Shown here piece by piece: positions 27,072 through 57,942 of a stretch of 64,000 nt of DNA. A model generated the notes under the pieces. That model was given only the letters and a program-made list of their open reading frames with translations. It made no database searches and was not told the origin of the DNA. The DNA is from a virus, in the IMG/VR virus record IMGVR_UViG_3300032893_000008, positions 55,224-119,223 of that record. One strand, written 5' to 3'. Position numbers and translations under genes: made by a program. The stretch's first letter is position 1. Each line of letters begins with the position of its first letter.

Positions 27072-28194
27072 AGACGTAGCTCGGATCGATGACGAGGTTG
27101 CCGGAGTTGGGCGCCGTAAGGTATCGAATAGGCCCTTCTTCGTTGGTATGCCCATAGTCGAGCACGAAATAGCCAGCGGTCGCTGGCCAGCTTGCCGGTA
27201 GCGGATTGACCAGGATGTTCGATAGGACCGTGCCTTTCGAGATCTTCCCGATGATAGTGGTCTTCAGGCTAGAGATCGAGTATTTCGCGTTACGGTCGAA
27301 GACATAGCCCGCCCCGATGGTGCCAGACGAATCCTTATTGAAGTGCAGCGCTCCCTTCAATTTCCGGGTAACTACCGCCGGCGAGGAAGGGAGTAGAACT
27401 ACCAGCTCTTCGTTGTTGACTTCATAGAGCACTGCCGGGCGAGACAAAGAATTGATGGTCTGCTTGCCGGTCGGGAAGGTGAAAGCCGCGGCCGCAGTTC
27501 CACCGGTAATTTCTACCGAACCAGTGGCACCGATAACCGAACTCGCGACATTCACAAACTGAACCAGGGACGTCGGGTCCGTTTGAACGCGCGCCGCTAG
27601 CTCGCCGTTCGGAAACTGACGGTTCATGGCATCTGCGACTTCCTGGGCCTTCGCGTTCGTAACGTCGAGGTAATCCGCAGTCTTGACGTAAAACGTAAGA
27701 TCACGGAGTTCATCCGTCGTTATCGTCAGTGTCTGACCATCCACGAGAGGGTAGGGTTCGGGAAAGAAAGATTCCACGTTCGCACTGACCGCCAGGGGGC
27801 CATACCAGATAGCTAGCAGCGCCTGGAGCGCCTGGCGAATCTGCTTGGGAACGTAGGACATTACGGGGATCAGACTGCGATAGTCAGGATCCTTCATCCC
27901 TACGCCCGCTGGTCGGCGCACACCGACGCTCGCACCTAGGCGATTCAAGTATTGCAGCTCGGCAGTCTCTACGTAGAGCTGTTTCTTCACCTGAGCCGTG
28001 AGATCTTCGACGCGGCAATCTCCTTGCCCGAACGCCACCAATAGCCCGCCTATGTTTGTGTTGGTGGTCGGTTTGTATGCCTCCGGCACCATACGAGTAA
28101 GTTTCTGGTAGGACTCGTTGTTGTATGGGCAAGGTTCAACCACTACCGCCGGCGCGATCTCGGGATCTTGCAGAAGGGTGTAGGTAGTAGCCAT
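26833..28194 (-). CDS. Baseplate-distal tail protein
   Basis: A 453-residue structural protein lying directly after the baseplate-J region in the leftward order. The N-terminus (PYNNESYQKLTRMVPEAYKP...ELQYLNRLGASVGVRRP) resembles the helical adaptor at the start of P2 gpI-like or tail-fibre-network proteins; a beta-rich middle follows (VEITGGTAAAAFTF) and a helical C-terminus. It probably links the baseplate wedge to fibres or spikes. Its start is coupled to the preceding gene (TAATG). Specific family not certain. Confidence 0.6.
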   Translation of the reverse strand: MATTYTLLQDPEIAPAVVVEPCPYNNESYQKLTRMVPEAYKPTTNTNIGGLLVAFGQGDCRVEDLTAQVKKQLYVETAELQYLNRLGASVGVRRPAGVGMKDPDYRSLIPVMSYVPKQIRQALQALLAIWYGPLAVSANVESFFPEPYPLVDGQTLTITTDELRDLTFYVKTADYLDVTNAKAQEVADAMNRQFPNGELAARVQTDPTSLVQFVNVASSVIGATGSVEITGGTAAAAFTFPTGKQTINSLSRPAVLYEVNNEELVVLLPSSPAVVTRKLKGALHFNKDSSGTIGAGYVFDRNAKYSISSLKTTIIGKISKGTVLSNILVNPLPASWPATAGYFVLDYGHTNEEGPIRYLTAPNSGNLVIDPSYVFKFDHAVSASIHYVRGLGAPKVKQDGTSYAAYVTGLATARQALEDLIVAATAVGVVVRFLVQAPAYKFSNPALDVNSAV

Positions 28195-45898: not shown

Positions 45899-46242
45899 TT
45901 GGTCCTCTTCACTCTTACCGTCACGGACTTGCCGGCGTTGAGCATCTTGGTGATTGCGTCCTTGGTCCCGCGGGATTCTCCATCCCAGAAAGCGATCATC
46001 TCGTCTGCCGCTGCCGCGATTTTGCTATTTCGCACCAGAGGGGCGTGGTTCCCGAACAGCTCGTAGTCCGGTAGGAAGGCTTCGACCTGTAGTCCGTCCT
46101 TGCGCGCCTGATCGGCCGCCCAGGAGTCGACTCCCGCGGCCCCGCCAGACACGATGATAGTGTCTGGCGTGAGCGCGTGGACGAATGCCCGGACTTGCTC
46201 TTCGTCCGGGTATCCGCGGCTACCTACGATCGCGAGCCTCAC
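45895..46242 (-). CDS. SLOG-superfamily nucleotide-binding protein (DUF2493 type)
   Basis: A 115-residue Rossmann-like protein. LAIVGSRGYPDEEQV at the N-terminus and TIIVSGGAAGVDSWAADQAR are the two glycine-rich signatures of the DprA/SMF-like SLOG fold of the DUF2493/YspA type. Members bind nucleotides or modified nucleotide signals and occur in phages and defence systems. GTG start overlapping the lipoprotein stop. Confidence 0.75.
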   Translation of the reverse strand: MRLAIVGSRGYPDEEQVRAFVHALTPDTIIVSGGAAGVDSWAADQARKDGLQVEAFLPDYELFGNHAPLVRNSKIAAAADEMIAFWDGESRGTKDAITKMLNAGKSVTVRVKRTK

Positions 46243-46841
46243 TTCGAACCCGGGGCGTAGTTCGCGTGGATCCCGCGCATGCCTTCGACCGTCAGATCGT
46301 GAACGGGCAAGGTAGGCGCTTCCATGATGGTCGACGGCGTCGGCGTCGAGACTGGCAGCGTGATCGGACCGGTGAGGTTGTAGAACTTGAAGTCGGTCCG
46401 AACGGGACCGGCGAGCACGCTACCATCGCCTGCGAAGTAGGTCGTGAAGACCGACAGCTTGGCCGTCGTCTCGACTGCCGAACCCTTGTAGACGCTCGTG
46501 ACGTAGAGCCCGTCGATGCCCGTCCAGACGTTCTCGATCTTGGAATCGATCACGACCTTGTCCTCCATGGCCAGGCCGAGCGCGCCCCAGTAGCTCACTC
46601 CGGCGCCGTCCTGCATGATCCAGATCGGGTAGTCGTCGACCGTCGTGGTCTGCAGATTCCCGCCGGGATCCTTGCCGGTGACGTCGATCGAGGCCAGGTA
46701 GGCGCCACCAACGACGGGCGAGACGTTGGAGACCCCCGACTTGGTCTTCTCGCAGCCGATCGTGACGGCGAGAGTGAGGAGGAGAACGAAGAAGGCGATG
46801 AGGACGCGTGCGGAACTGCGTGCGAAGATGTTTCCGGTCAT
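46239..46841 (-). CDS. Lipoprotein with beta-rich outer domain
   Basis: A 200-residue protein. N-terminal signal RVLIAFFVLLLTLAVTIGC with a good lipobox (VTIGC) predicts lipidation at about Cys30; then a disordered spacer and a beta-rich domain (YLASIDVTGKD, YPIWIMQDGAGVSYWGALG, KVVIDSKIENVWTG) resembling small periplasmic or surface domains of unknown role. The ATG at 46841 is chosen for its AAAGGGA ribosome site; the frame opens upstream to 46910. Possibly superinfection exclusion or spanin partner. Confidence 0.62.
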   Translation of the reverse strand: MTGNIFARSSARVLIAFFVLLLTLAVTIGCEKTKSGVSNVSPVVGGAYLASIDVTGKDPGGNLQTTTVDDYPIWIMQDGAGVSYWGALGLAMEDKVVIDSKIENVWTGIDGLYVTSVYKGSAVETTAKLSVFTTYFAGDGSVLAGPVRTDFKFYNLTGPITLPVSTPTPSTIMEAPTLPVHDLTVEGMRGIHANYAPGSK

Positions 46842-46862
46842 GTGTTTCCCTTTCTGTAGGGG

Positions 46863-46887
46863 ATAATACCCCCGTGATTCAGTTTTA
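46863..46887 (-). promoter_or_regulatory. Promoter of lipoprotein/SLOG unit, with TAAAAC box
   Basis: On the minus strand TAAAAC (46887-46882), 13 bases, then GGG-TATTAT (46868-46863). The leader before ATG 46841 is about 20 bases and holds a Shine-Dalgarno sequence. Confidence 0.5.
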
Positions 46888-46903
46888 GCACCATGATAGA
46901 AGC

Positions 46904-46931
46904 TTGACAAGCTTTTTCTTCATGGTAAAGT
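46904..46931 (+). promoter_or_regulatory. Promoter of the 147-nt structured RNA
   Basis: TTGACA (46904-46909), 16 bases, TGG-TAAAGT (46926-46931). The first base of the RNA stem (46938) lies 7 bases beyond the -10, where a transcript should begin. The -35 overlaps a small AAGCTT...AAGCTT palindrome. Confidence 0.6.
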
Positions 46932-46937
46932 TGGGAC

Positions 46938-47084
46938 GTCCGAAGCGCCTCCGAGGAGAGGGACTTCCCTGAGCCGTATTGGGCCTATAAGGACGAGCGG
47001 GGTAGGGGGCGGAGGGTTGGTTGGCGAATGCATCCCGTGCAAACGGGGGAGCAACAAGCACCACGTGTAGGAGGCGCTTCGGAC
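46938..47084 (+). ncRNA. Structured non-coding RNA candidate closed by a 15-bp helix
   Basis: The two ends are perfect complements over 15 bases (46938-46952 with 47070-47084). Inside are a hairpin AGGG-ACTT-CCCT (about 46959-46970) and a GNRA-capped hairpin CCCGT-GCAA-ACGGG (47034-47047), separated by a G-rich stretch. A sigma-70-like promoter places its start exactly at the first paired base. No credible reading frame on this strand fills it. I do not recognise an RNA family (not tRNA, tmRNA, 4.5S or RNase P); 6S-like or phage-specific sRNA are options. Confidence 0.6.
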
Positions 47085-47167
47085 TAGTAGCGCTTGTGAC
47101 TGCCGAACCAGTAGTCCAGGATCAGCAGCACGATCACGCACCAGAAGAAAAACCAGCCGAATTTCAT
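47084..47167 (-). CDS. 27-residue membrane mini-protein
   Basis: The ATG overlaps the stop of the metzincin gene (ATGA), and the peptide is one hydrophobic helix (KFGWFFFWCVIVLLILDYW) with a charged tail (GSHKRY). Its stop overlaps the last base of the RNA helix on the other strand. Tight coupling and membrane-protein composition support it, but the size leaves doubt. Confidence 0.45.
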   Translation of the reverse strand: MKFGWFFFWCVIVLLILDYWFGSHKRY

Positions 47168-47616
47168 GCGTTTTCTCGCAGCCTACGGGTGCACTCTCGA
47201 CAGAATCGCCCGAATGATACGTTCACCGGGCACATGAGACAGAACGGATCGGGATGATGCTTCAGCCCGCGGACGTGCCCTAGCTCGTGGCGTAGCACCC
47301 ATCGAGCCATGATGTTCTTGAAGGGTCCGAACAGACTGAGCCCACGCCACGAGAGCGTTACTACCGAGTTGGCGGTATCGAACTGCCACTGGGGATAGGT
47401 CCAGCCTCGTTCGCGATACGTTCCTTGCTTTACGATGACGATCTGGTCGTAGTTGCGGCAAAATTCAACGACTTCGCCTACGTCTCGATGTGGAAGGTGA
47501 ACTACAGCTACGGAATCAAATCCCATGCTGAGCGGAGCATCATTCGCGACGTTGACGTTCTCGATCGACGGCAAGTCGTCGTTGAGCCCGGTGGTATAGA
47601 CAACGATTAGCCTCAC
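47164..47616 (-). CDS. Archaemetzincin-like zinc metalloprotease
   Basis: 150 residues from GTG 47616 (chosen because it overlaps the previous stop; the frame opens at 47646). HELGHVRGLKH (H110, E111, H114, G117, H120) fits the metzincin consensus HExxHxxGxxH exactly. It is followed closely by CLMC and, ten residues later, CREC, like the second structural zinc site of archaemetzincins, here more compact. No signal peptide, so it probably acts in the cytoplasm. Target unknown; it may inactivate a host protein. Confidence 0.75.
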   Translation of the reverse strand: MRLIVVYTTGLNDDLPSIENVNVANDAPLSMGFDSVAVVHLPHRDVGEVVEFCRNYDQIVIVKQGTYRERGWTYPQWQFDTANSVVTLSWRGLSLFGPFKNIMARWVLRHELGHVRGLKHHPDPFCLMCPVNVSFGRFCRECTRRLRENA

Positions 47617-52418: not shown

Positions 52419-52490
52419 CTCCCGAGGCACGAATCGAACGTGCGTCTGCCGGTTCAAAGCCGGCGGTCCTAGCCACTGAACGACTCGGAA
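52419..52490 (-). tRNA. tRNA-Gln (anticodon UUG)
   Basis: 72 nt, read leftward. Acceptor TTCCGAG pairs with CTCGGGA; the anticodon stem GCCGG/CCGGC encloses CTTTGAA (anticodon TTG); T loop TTCGATT. U1 and UUG support glutamine. CCA is not encoded. Its 5' end abuts the next tRNA without any spacer. Confidence 0.88.
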
Positions 52491-52561
52491 CTAGCGAGGA
52501 AGGGGTCGAACCTTCACTTTCGCGCTCAGAACGCGACGTGCTACCGCTACACTACCCGCCA
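52491..52561 (-). tRNA. tRNA-Gln (anticodon CUG)
   Basis: 71 nt. Acceptor TGGCGGG pairs with CTCGCTA (two G-U); anticodon stem TCGCG/CGCGA encloses TTCTGAG (anticodon CTG); T arm GAAGG-TTCGACC-CCTTC. U1 again fits glutamine. No CCA; directly adjacent to both neighbours. Confidence 0.85.
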
Positions 52562-52634
52562 TGGCTTCGTAGGGAATCGCACCCTCTTCCCCGGTTTAAA
52601 AGACCGGTGCTCATCTGACTAAAGCTTCGAAGCC
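52562..52634 (-). tRNA. tRNA-Lys (anticodon UUU)
   Basis: 73 nt. Acceptor GGCTTCG/CGAAGCC; anticodon stem CCGGT/ACCGG encloses CTTTTAA (anticodon TTT). The T stem has one mismatch (GAGGG with CCCTA). Discriminator A, no CCA. Ends exactly where the previous tRNA begins. Confidence 0.85.
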
Positions 52635-52636
52635 GA

Positions 52637-52707
52637 TCTGGGTGGCGAGAATCGAACTCGCTCTTTCGGGTTCCAGGCCCGGAATGCAACCACTACACCA
52701 CACCCAG
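52637..52707 (-). tRNA. tRNA, probably Pro (anticodon UGG)
   Basis: 71 nt. Acceptor CTGGGTG/CACCCAG; T arm GCGAG-TTCGATT-CTCGC. The anticodon arm CCGGG-CCTGGAA-CCCGA reads UGG at 34-36, and the C1-G72 pair fits proline, but residue 33 is C rather than U and the stem has one mismatch. A GGA reading (Ser) is the alternative. Two bases from the Lys tRNA. Confidence 0.75.
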
Positions 52708-52898: not shown

Positions 52899-52930
52899 TA
52901 AAATCCCCGGGCGGTTTGCGCCGCCCGGGG
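52899..52930 (-). terminator. Strong hairpin with short T run (terminator-like)
   Basis: A perfect 10-bp GC-rich hairpin (CCCCGGGCGG with CCGCCCGGGG, loop of 6; 52905-52930) is followed on the minus strand by ATTTTA. It lies downstream of the YiiX-like gene and would separate it from the tRNA region. On the plus strand the same T run reads as a CGG-TAAAAT hexamer, so a promoter role is also possible. Confidence 0.5.
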
Positions 52931-53020
52931 CCGGTGTTTGAACGCTTCTCGTCTTTGGGTGCTGCTCGTAGCGGGCTCTAGATCCTCTACGCCAGGATTA
53001 TACCGCGTCCTCCTAGGAGT

Positions 53021-53572
53021 TCAAGGCGTGATGCGACGAAAATTTATCGAGGTCGAGACGATCCGATGGAGGTCTTCTGGGGATACCGAATGCTCATCCA
53101 GATCGCCGAACTCCTTCGGAAACAGCTCCTGCAAATAGAACCAGACCACCTGGGAGCAGATAGCGCCCTGCTCGATCGGGTCGTGGAACCGCAGCCCCAT
53201 CTTGGCAGCCAGGATCTTCATCGCGATCCCGAGCAACTCGAAATAGCCGTAGGTCACGCCCTCGAAACGTTCCTGCGCCTTGGCTAAGGCAGCATCGACC
53301 GCTGGCGCATTCGCCATGGGCTGCCACAGTTCCGTAGGCACTACAGCAGGGTTGGAATACTCGCGCCAGGTGCGGAAGTCCGTGCCGCCGGCGTTTGCCT
53401 CCATCAGATAGACCCGATCCATGAAGACGTCCGTGATTACGAAGGTGTGCGACCACTTCGACTTCGTAAACCAACGGATAATCTTAGAGATCTGGGAATG
53501 GTTATTGGTAGCGAAGCCGATGACACCTCGCTTCCGGATCACTTCTTTGCCATTCAACGTTACGATAGCCAT
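53021..53572 (-). CDS. YiiX/NlpC-P60-like permuted papain-fold hydrolase
   Basis: 183 residues. The order of likely catalytic residues is permuted: H42 in KWSHTFVITD, an acidic residue in YLMEAN (E58), and C139 in GAICSQVVWFYL, as in YiiX/YebB and LRAT-like members of the NlpC/P60 superfamily. GVIGFATNNHSQISKIIRWF at the N-terminus is also typical. It may cut peptidoglycan peptides or amide/thioester bonds. Ribosome site AAGGAGG lies before the ATG, downstream of a strong terminator. Confidence 0.75.
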   Translation of the reverse strand: MAIVTLNGKEVIRKRGVIGFATNNHSQISKIIRWFTKSKWSHTFVITDVFMDRVYLMEANAGGTDFRTWREYSNPAVVPTELWQPMANAPAVDAALAKAQERFEGVTYGYFELLGIAMKILAAKMGLRFHDPIEQGAICSQVVWFYLQELFPKEFGDLDEHSVSPEDLHRIVSTSINFRRITP

Positions 53573-55188: not shown

Positions 55189-57942
55189 TTACGCCGTCGC
55201 CCGGATGTTGTCGAGCACGATGCTCGGCAGGATGAAGTCCACGCTCTGAGCGGGCGTGATCACGATATCGACCGTCATCACGTTACCATCGAGGCGCACG
55301 ACGAGGTTCTTGAAGCCCAGCCCTTCATTGGTGTCGTCACCGACAAGCAGGCCGGCATCCTTCGCCGCCTGGGAGAACTGGATGACTGCGTTCTTGACCG
55401 CGACCGGAGTAGCCGTGACCGAGGACACACCAACGAACAGGTTTTCGAGGACCTGGCGAAGGTTGTAGGCGTAGGTGTCCGCGGCGTAGAGCGTCGAAAT
55501 ACGGTTGTAGACGAAGGAGTTATCCTTGCCGTAGGTCGTATTACCGACGACGATCCGGAAACCACCCGACTGCGGCTGTTCACCGAAGAGCAGGCCGTTC
55601 GCGATCGCATCATCGCCATCCGTAGCGGGATCGAAGTCCGCGTGCGAGAGACCGGAGACGTTGATGGACTTGTGGGTCATCGGTTCGCCGATAGACGCAC
55701 CGGCCTGCATGCCGGCGGCGATGCAAGCAAAGCCCCAGGGCTGGACGTAATCGAGCGTTCCGTCGGTCTTCAGGATCTTGACGTCCTGGATGGCGAGCGA
55801 TACGCGCTCGGAAGCGAGATTGTTGGACTTGACCTTCGAATCGGCGTAAGTGCCCTTATAGGACGCGTAGCCGTTGCGCTCGGAGCGGTTCTTGGTGTTC
55901 GACATCAGGAGCACGTGGCTCTTGAGGCCGGCGTTGATAGCGTCCACCGTGTAGGTCGAGCTGGGATCGGTCAGGGAGTCGAGGATGTCCGCGGTAGCGT
56001 CGCGCGAGAAGAGCGGGACGACGGAGTTGACGCGGACCTTCTGCATCGCATCGAGACCGGCCTGCACGGCAGCTGCAGTCGAACCACCAAGCGCACCACC
56101 GGAGAGGAACACCGGAGTCGTCGTCGCCGTCGGAAGACCGGCGAACGAAGAGCGAGTCAGACCCACGAGCTGGCTGGCGTCGTAGAACGACTGGACGTCG
56201 TAGGAGTCCTTCTTGATGCGACCGGGCTTGTCGGTGGCGATCGCGCAAGCGATACCGATCGCAGTCACGCGATCGAGGATCGAGGGCGGGAGCTGGCCGT
56301 AGAGCGCGTTCGCGACGACACAGGAGTAACCGGTCTGCGAGTTGATGTAGGTAGCGAGGTCGTTCAGGGTCTTGAAATCCGACAGACGCAGGCTCAGGTC
56401 CGACGCCGAGCCGCCGGCATGGGTCGTCGTGAGCTGGGTCGCGGAGATCGTGAGCGTGCAGGTCGTGGCAACGCAGCCCACCAGGAGCGCGAACGCACCA
56501 CCGACGGTCCCGGAGGACTCGGTGAGGTTGTCCGACTGACGGTTAACCGTCAGAGAGACGCTCGGTTCAGCGGAGGAGACGTTCAGGATCGGGATCGAAG
56601 CGACAGAAGCGAAACCCTTGAAGACCTGGACATCCGTCTGGGCCGCGATATCGGCCGGAGCGACCGTGACCGGGGAACCAGTGATCTTCGTAGCGGTGAT
56701 CGAAGACGCGCTCGCAGCCGTCACGCGCCAGGCGCCGACGTTTTGGAGCGCACCGCCGGCGATCGGGGAGCCCGGACGCACCCAGAGCATATCGCCTGCG
56801 GCCGGGACGGCAGCGTAAGCACTGGAAGTCGCGAACACACCCGAAGAACCGCTGACGGTCACGCCGATCGTGGATCCATCGGTGACCGAAGTCGCCGAGA
56901 GAACGCCGCGGTCGACGCCGCCGAACATCGTTTCGTCGATCGAGACCGCGGCCGCGCCGTCGTAGATCTCCAGGCTGGAGCCTTCGCCCGCGGGCGTAGA
57001 GGTCGCGACCGAGAGGACGATCGGGGAGTAGCAGACGACGTCACTCGTAGCGGCGATGTCGGTCGCAGCGACGTTCGCGCAGGCGACCGAAGGATCGCCG
57101 AGCTTGACGGCCGTAATCGTGTTGGAAGTGACAGCCGTAACGAGGTAGCCACCGGCGTTAGCGCTGGCGCCGCCGACGATCGCGGATCCGAGCGGGATGT
57201 GAAGCGTATCACCGACGGTCGGGTTCACGGCCCAGGTGGGGGTCGTGTTGGAAATCGTGATCGTAACGACGTTACCAACCGAGGAGATCGCGATCTTGGT
57301 TCCGTCCGCTACACGACCAGCGTCGATGATGCCACGGTCGGTGCCGCCGGTCGCCGAGAGCCCGGAGAGGCCGTTGAGGGCCGATCGCACGGTAGCGGGC
57401 GTAGCGTCCGCGAGCTGGGCAGTCGAAACTTCGGCCAGACCGTCGACGCGCGCCTTGAAGGTAGACGCGGACGTGGAATCGGGCATCCAGTTGAAGGTAA
57501 GGGAGAACTTCGCTTCCGAAGCGGCAGCGTCAACCGAGAAGTTGATCAGGTTCTCAGCAACGCCGTAGTTCAGGGACTTGAGAGTGCCGTAGCTCGACGG
57601 CAGAGTGCCGCTAGCCTGGGTGGAAGCGTTGGTTTTGTAGATGAAGAGCTGCTGAGCGCCGTTAGCGATACGCGCATCAGCGGAGGGATTGAAGAGGATG
57701 CTAGCCGCATCGACGATCGGGCCCGACTTGTAGGTCGAGACGATCTCGGAGAACTGCTCGGGCGTGAAAGAGTTGCCCTTGACGTCGACCGCCGAACCGG
57801 GGGCGCCACCTTCGGCTTCACCGACGATACCGACGATACCGGCAGGAGCGAGCTGGAAACCACCGGAAAGCGAGACAGTCGTCTTGCTGTAAGCGCCGGG
57901 CTTACGAAGGGTTGCACCGTTGAAATTGATCGAGATCGCCAT
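55189..57942 (-). CDS. Tail sheath protein with duplicated inserted domain
   Basis: 917 residues, larger than most sheaths. The N-terminus (GATLRKPGAYSKTTVSLSGGFQLAPAGIVGIVGEAEGG) and C-terminus (YAYNLRQVLENLFVGVS, LGFKNLVVRLDGNVMTVDIVITPAQSVDFI) are classic phage tail-sheath sequences, the latter being the inner strand-exchange domain. Between about residues 230 and 430 lie two tandem copies of a beta module (GDTLHIPLGSAIVGGASANAG-YLVTAVT; GDMLWVRPGSPIAGGALQNVG-AWRVTA), likely displayed on the outside. It forms the contractile sheath and so defines a myovirus. Coupled with downstream tail genes. Confidence 0.9.
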   Translation of the reverse strand: MAISINFNGATLRKPGAYSKTTVSLSGGFQLAPAGIVGIVGEAEGGAPGSAVDVKGNSFTPEQFSEIVSTYKSGPIVDAASILFNPSADARIANGAQQLFIYKTNASTQASGTLPSSYGTLKSLNYGVAENLINFSVDAAASEAKFSLTFNWMPDSTSASTFKARVDGLAEVSTAQLADATPATVRSALNGLSGLSATGGTDRGIIDAGRVADGTKIAISSVGNVVTITISNTTPTWAVNPTVGDTLHIPLGSAIVGGASANAGGYLVTAVTSNTITAVKLGDPSVACANVAATDIAATSDVVCYSPIVLSVATSTPAGEGSSLEIYDGAAAVSIDETMFGGVDRGVLSATSVTDGSTIGVTVSGSSGVFATSSAYAAVPAAGDMLWVRPGSPIAGGALQNVGAWRVTAASASSITATKITGSPVTVAPADIAAQTDVQVFKGFASVASIPILNVSSAEPSVSLTVNRQSDNLTESSGTVGGAFALLVGCVATTCTLTISATQLTTTHAGGSASDLSLRLSDFKTLNDLATYINSQTGYSCVVANALYGQLPPSILDRVTAIGIACAIATDKPGRIKKDSYDVQSFYDASQLVGLTRSSFAGLPTATTTPVFLSGGALGGSTAAAVQAGLDAMQKVRVNSVVPLFSRDATADILDSLTDPSSTYTVDAINAGLKSHVLLMSNTKNRSERNGYASYKGTYADSKVKSNNLASERVSLAIQDVKILKTDGTLDYVQPWGFACIAAGMQAGASIGEPMTHKSINVSGLSHADFDPATDGDDAIANGLLFGEQPQSGGFRIVVGNTTYGKDNSFVYNRISTLYAADTYAYNLRQVLENLFVGVSSVTATPVAVKNAVIQFSQAAKDAGLLVGDDTNEGLGFKNLVVRLDGNVMTVDIVITPAQSVDFILPSIVLDNIRATA

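What the first reader, a model, noticed from the sequence alone, without database searches (positions are those of the whole stretch)
46904..47084. Unassigned 147-nt structured RNA with its own promoter
A 15-bp perfect helix joins the two ends (46938-46952 with 47070-47084), there is an internal GNRA-capped hairpin and another small hairpin, and TTGACA-N16-TGGTAAAGT places the predicted start exactly on the first base of the helix. The region has no credible gene on that strand. End-closed RNA of this size resembles 6S-like or scaffolding RNAs, but no known family is recognised. It may titrate host polymerase, act as an sRNA, or be a phage-specific RNA.
Basis: partly seen in the sequence, partly recalled or inferred. 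Interest (0 to 1): 0.8.

Follow-up and report, generated by a model that had tools for sequence, protein, structure and literature searches.

The report
Orphan end-closed phage RNA gene
A bacterial virus known only from a metagenome carries what looks like a genuine small non-coding RNA gene: a promoter of the virus's own standard type places the RNA's first base exactly on a 15-base-pair helix that ties its two ends together, but nothing related was found anywhere, so its job is unknown.

Summary
TTGACA(46904-46909)-N16-TAAAGT(46926-46931) precedes a 147-nt segment whose ends form a perfect 15-bp helix (46938-46952/47070-47084). Inside are one imperfect hairpin and one GCAA (GNRA) hairpin. 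MFE is -67.2 kcal/mol, z -3.7.

The key new evidence comes from the phage genome itself (119,223-bp contig). It has a strong promoter grammar: GGTANN[AG]T occurs 108 times, and ATG/GTG lies exactly 6 nt after it 23 times, against at most 4 at any other offset. So many genes are leaderless and +1 is the 7th base after the -10. The RNA's promoter is one of 12 class-A sites (TTGAC-like...GGTANN[AG]T; 1.4 expected). The rule puts +1 at 46938, the helix's first base. A >=15-bp inverted repeat with a 20-400 nt loop is expected 0.04 times in the contig.

I conclude this is a real, independently transcribed ncRNA gene. Rfam, IMG/VR, phage, plasmid and GTDB searches found no relative, so covariation could not be tested. 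6S, Y RNA, retron and tRNA/tmRNA readings fail tests or lack support. Most likely it is a stable protein- or ribosome-binding decoy/scaffold RNA, but that step is inference. The main rivals are a chance repeat and a 49-codon leaderless peptide that would have to start at GTC.

The parts
46900..46914 (.). perfect 7+1+7 palindrome AAGCTTGACAAGCTT overlapping the -35 element; possible operator
   Evidence: sequence; only exact copy in the contig; 101 7-bp inverted repeats with 0-6 spacer exist in the contig, so modest evidence
46904..46909 (+). -35 element TTGACA
46924..46931 (+). extended -10 element GGTAAAGT (class-A phage promoter)
   Evidence: one of 12 TTGAC-like sites with GGTANN[AG]T, 1.4 expected in shuffles
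46938..46938 (+). predicted +1: 7th base after the -10, and first base of the helix
   Evidence: genome-wide rule from leaderless genes: ATG/GTG exactly 6 nt after GGTANN[AG]T in 23 of 108 sites
46938..47084 (+). 147-nt end-closed ncRNA (3' end inferred from the helix, no terminator found)
46938..46952 (+). 5' arm of 15-bp terminal clamp GUCCGAAGCGCCUCC
   Evidence: pair probabilities 0.96-1.0
46953..46963 (+). purine-rich mostly unpaired linker GAGGAGAGGGA
   Evidence: unpaired or weakly paired in the ensemble
46967..47007 (+). imperfect hairpin H1
   Evidence: pair probabilities 0.6-0.93
47033..47048 (+). hairpin H2, CCCGU-GCAA-ACGGG, GNRA-capped
   Evidence: pair probabilities about 0.76-0.87
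47070..47084 (+). 3' arm of terminal clamp GGAGGCGCUUCGGAC

Best explanation
A genuine small non-coding RNA gene of a large contractile-tailed phage. Shown by computation: a promoter of the phage's class A (TTGAC-like -35 with GGTANN[AG]T), used also for tRNA arrays and non-structural genes, is followed at exactly the genome's own +1 distance by the first base of a 15-bp helix that closes a 147-nt, two-hairpin RNA. Inferred: host sigma-70-type polymerase makes it, probably early; the 3' end is trimmed back to the clamp by nucleases or made by Rho, since there is no intrinsic terminator; the clamp makes it stable. Inferred and weak: it acts by binding a protein or the ribosome (decoy or scaffold) through the purine-rich linkers GAGGAGAGGGA and GGCGGAGGG between the hairpins, rather than as an Hfq-type pairing sRNA. 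Split of belief: RNA gene real about 0.7; given that, protein/ribosome-binding about 0.5, base-pairing regulator about 0.25, other 0.25.
For: Promoter class and +1 rule. Rarity of the clamp. Fold stability. No credible + strand gene downstream before about 50.39 kb, so the transcript is not the leader of anything. The segment is intergenic: the lipoprotein gene 46239-46841(-) has its own class-B promoter at 46870(-), and the small TM ORF 47084-47168(-) ends at the clamp. Codon scores of all six frames (-0.26 to -0.89) lie outside the in-frame gene range (0.14 to 0.58).
Against: No homolog anywhere, so no covariation. No terminator. The minus strand folds comparably against its own shuffles. 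A 49-codon frame is open from +1 to a TAG right after the clamp. No transcript data.
Confidence: 0.6

Rival explanations
1. A small leaderless protein gene of 49 codons that starts at +1 with a non-standard codon GTC (one base from GTG) and stops at TAG 47085-47087.
For: Other sites of this promoter type carry ATG/GTG exactly at +1 (23 cases); frame 0 is open for 49 codons and the stop follows the clamp directly.
Against: GTC is not a normal start; codon score -0.36 against 0.14-0.58 for gene pieces; no relative of the peptide in IMG/VR, phages, Pfam or PHROGs (the phage hits at E 0.3-10 are noise); a codon one change away from ATG/GTG is common by chance; tRNA arrays show that class-A promoters also drive non-coding RNA.
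Confidence: 0.12
2. The promoter is real but the structure is incidental: a chance inverted repeat in an intergenic gap.
For: Some 15-bp repeats occur by chance; no conservation can be shown; other windows fold as strongly in this GC-rich genome (36 of 3,970).
Against: About 0.04 such repeats expected in the contig, and this one starts exactly at the calibrated +1.
Confidence: 0.13
3. A DNA-level or minus-strand element: the end repeats of a small mobile element, a protein-binding cruciform, or a 3' structure of the minus-strand operon.
For: The clamp is palindromic and begins at the stop codon of the minus-strand ORF 47084-47168; the minus strand folds too.
Against: Single copy in the contig; no target-site duplication seen at the two ends; no identical arm pair in IMG/VR, and the two arm-pair hits in GTDB genomes lie inside open frames and share only the arms; no U-run after the repeat on the minus strand; it does not explain the + strand promoter.
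Confidence: 0.08
4. A phage Y RNA that works with a Ro60/TROVE protein.
For: Ends paired; begins GUCCGAAG, as in the Ro-binding stem of vertebrate Y RNAs (from memory); the distant relative Myxococcus phage Mx1 encodes a TROVE protein.
Against: No TROVE gene in the contig; the conserved bulged C of Y RNAs (PMC4030889) is absent because the clamp is perfect; no Rfam Y-RNA hit even at E<=10; no tRNA-like module seen.
Confidence: 0.03

Closest known systems
Bacterial Y RNAs (YrlA, Deinococcus Y RNA) with Ro60/Rsr
   Same: ends paired in a long stem; size near 100-150 nt; start GUCCGAAG resembles the Ro site (recalled, not tested)
   Different: no bulged C, no TROVE gene in the contig, no tRNA-like module, no Rfam match
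6S RNA (RF00013)
   Same: size class, ends paired, free-standing gene
   Different: branched with two hairpins instead of one long hairpin with a central bubble; no Rfam match at E<=10
Retron msr-msd RNA
   Same: a1/a2-like end pairing
   Different: no reverse transcriptase in the contig, no long msd hairpin
Phage ornate RNAs GOLLD and ROOL (PMC12286853, abstract)
   Same: structured phage-associated non-coding RNA
   Different: those are far larger; no Rfam match here

Membership tests
Y RNA / YrlA | bulged cytosine in the Ro-binding stem | tested here: not met
   15 perfect pairs, no bulge; definition from PMC4030889
Y RNA / YrlA | TROVE protein partner in the same genome | tested here: not met
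   PF05731 absent from the 119-kb contig, control genome rings; the contig may be incomplete and a host partner is untested
Y RNA / YrlA | match to Rfam models | tested here: not met
6S RNA | match to the Rfam model | tested here: not met
   no match at E<=10
6S RNA | single rod with large central bubble | tested here: not met
   ensemble gives a multiloop with two hairpins
6S RNA | binds sigma-70 RNA polymerase and templates pRNA | not testable with these tools
   needs biochemistry
Retron ncRNA | adjacent reverse transcriptase | tested here: not met
   PF00078 absent from the contig
tRNA/tmRNA | ARAGORN or Rfam match | tested here: not met
CsrA/RsmA-titrating RNA | excess of GGA motifs | tested here: not met
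   7 GGA against 4.9 expected from composition, 2 of them inside the clamp
Independently transcribed small RNA | promoter at the 5' end | tested here: met
   class-A promoter with +1 on the helix, by sequence only
Independently transcribed small RNA | defined 3' end or terminator | tested here: inconclusive
   no intrinsic terminator on the + strand
Independently transcribed small RNA | compensatory changes in relatives | not testable with these tools
   no relatives found

The most novel reading that the evidence does not exclude
The founding member of a new class of phage end-closed RNA that captures a host factor (RNA polymerase, 30S subunit or an Ro-like protein) early in infection.
Probability: 0.12. 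Interest if true: 0.75.

Novelty: new member of a known kind. Interest (0 to 1): 0.42.

Why it matters
If transcribed as predicted, it is an orphan phage RNA gene found by promoter grammar and end-pairing alone. It is outside Rfam and sits in a phage group (distantly related to Myxococcus phage Mx1) for which I found no RNA study. The promoter rule itself gives an objective way to find further RNA genes in this genome.

Tried and rejected
Homology: the search for related loci with the lipoprotein, the M10-like ORF, baseplate J and a tail-region protein gave nothing or one distant locus. A two-row portal alignment found only relatives at <=38% identity. A single-sequence covariance model R1 found only itself in our contig, with one spurious match in Mx1, nothing in 15 viral records and Mx1 and nothing in 189 genomes of one phylum. 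That model is untested on a known relative, so the negatives are weak. Arm-pair pattern: 0 in IMG/VR; 2 in GTDB genomes, both inside open frames and chance. GNRA-region pattern: 0. blastn against phages and plasmids: noise only. TAG recoding, suspected from the CTA-anticodon tRNA: rejected, because the sheath gene 55189-57942(-) is open under the normal code. Y RNA, 6S, retron, tmRNA and CsrA sponge: see membership test. RNA-RNA pairing of the GAGGAGAG linker with the loop of a second hairpin (L005): -15.9 kcal/mol in duplexfold, left aside because purine-rich against pyrimidine-rich stretches pair easily by chance.

Full report
What the window is. The window is bases 55,224-119,223 of a 119,223-base virus record. 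The record encodes terminase, portal, DNA polymerase, UvsX-like recombinase, SbcC/D-like proteins, ribonucleotide reductase, thymidylate synthase and baseplate or tail proteins, plus a GroEL-like ORF and a sheath ORF recognised by position and synteny with Mx1. Its nearest deposited phage is Myxococcus phage Mx1, 27-32% identical in terminase and baseplate J. No close relative was found in IMG/VR; the best portal match is 38%.

The observation. All stated elements are present at the stated coordinates. The fold is -67.2 kcal/mol with z -3.68. The clamp pairs have probability near 1, and the CCCGU-GCAA-ACGGG hairpin about 0.85. A perfect >=15-bp repeat with a 20-400 nt loop is expected 0.04 times in the contig; two are present, and 20 shuffled genomes had none. 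The minus strand folds equally well against its own shuffles, so the strand has to be settled by the promoter.

The promoter. A scan for TTGAC + GGTANN[AG]T with free spacing found seven sites, all with 14 or 15 nt between the -35 hexamer and GGTA; shuffles gave about 0.15 at those spacings. GGTANNAT occurs 63 times against 21 expected, with ATG exactly 6 nt later 13 times against 0.3 expected. Counting GTG starts and [AG]T ends, the 6-nt offset has 23 cases; no other offset from 0 to 19 has more than 4. So many mRNAs of this phage are predicted to be leaderless, with +1 at the seventh base after the -10. Upstream elements split into class A (TTGAC-like at -35; 12 sites, 1.4 expected) and class B (TAAAAC about 16 nt before GGTA; 14 sites, 1.1 expected). 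The RNA has a class-A promoter, as do the tRNA arrays at L005:871-1365 and, through the site at window 53024(-), 52419-52707. By this rule its +1 is 46938, the first base of the clamp.

Surroundings. The lipoprotein-like gene (46239-46841, -) has its own class-B promoter at 46870(-). A 27-residue transmembrane ORF (47084-47168, -), whose ATG overlaps the upstream gene's TGA, ends on the clamp. No credible + strand gene lies downstream until about 50.39 kb. The RNA gene is therefore an isolated + strand unit in a minus-strand region. No intrinsic terminator follows it, so its 3' end is an inference from the structure.

Coding test. One + strand frame is open from +1 (GTC) for 49 codons to TAG 47085-47087. 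Its codon score (-0.36) falls among off-frame sequence (5-95%: -1.33 to 0.14), not in-frame (0.14 to 0.58). Two short neighbour ORFs also score low (-0.13, -0.02), so this is not decisive. No relative of the peptide was found.

Identity. Rfam gives nothing at the gathering score, and at E<=10 only one microRNA chance match. A Y RNA is attractive because of the GUCCGAAG start and the TROVE gene of Mx1, but TROVE is absent here and so is the defining bulged cytosine (PMC4030889). A retron is unlikely because the contig has no reverse transcriptase. 6S is not supported by shape or model. GGA motifs are not in clear excess for a CsrA sponge.

How it probably works. Shown by sequence analysis: promoter, start position, clamp. 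Inferred: early-type expression by host polymerase, and stability from the clamp. Inferred weakly: function through the G/A-rich linkers, which resemble Shine-Dalgarno sequence, as a ribosome- or protein-binding decoy or scaffold. Absence of a terminator U-tract argues against a classic Hfq sRNA. No computation here distinguishes these options.

Limits. No transcript data, no homologs, no covariation; the contig may be incomplete and its host is unknown. The covariance searches used a one-sequence model whose sensitivity could not be checked.

Noticed in passing
whole contig G000 (window = 55224-119223); e.g. window 51192+, 50376+, 49366-, 45030-, 38535-, 30209-, 25604-: Strong promoter grammar: GGTANN[AG]T with ATG/GTG exactly 6 nt downstream (23 cases) implies widespread leaderless mRNAs. 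Two upstream classes, CTTGAC and TAAAAC-N11/12, look like two regulons; Mx1 does not show it.
   Followed up: partly
L005:7768-7821 (contig 27768-27821, minus): The only other 15-bp perfect repeat of the contig is a hairpin with a pyrimidine-rich 24-nt loop and a TGTTTTTCT tail, just after a class-B-like promoter and before the exonuclease gene; possible attenuator, terminator or second sRNA.
   Followed up: partly
window about 52903-52931 (-): Strong hairpin CCCCGGGCGG-CGCAAA-CCGCCCGGGG followed by ATTTTA between the class-A promoter at 53024 and the tRNA array; possible terminator, leader RNA or sRNA.
   Followed up: no
L007:46646-47023 (Mx1 46646-47023): Myxococcus phage Mx1 carries a tmRNA gene (Rfam 117.7 bits), not listed in the record's features, within its tRNA array; it also encodes a TROVE-domain protein.
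   Followed up: no
L004:1431-1534: A 104-nt Rfam tRNA match (39.6 bits) that ARAGORN does not call; possibly a tRNA with an insertion.
   Followed up: no
L005:871-948: tRNA with CTA anticodon (amber-suppressor type) although TAG does not appear to be recoded in the sheath gene.
   Followed up: partly
window 46900-46914: Perfect palindrome AAGCTTGACAAGCTT over the -35 element of the RNA promoter; possible operator, single copy.
   Followed up: partly
window 47084-47168 (-): 27-residue transmembrane ORF (MKFGWFFFWCVIVLLILDYWFGSHKRY) overlapping the upstream stop codon (ATGA); too short for the ORF lists, no family match.
   Followed up: partly
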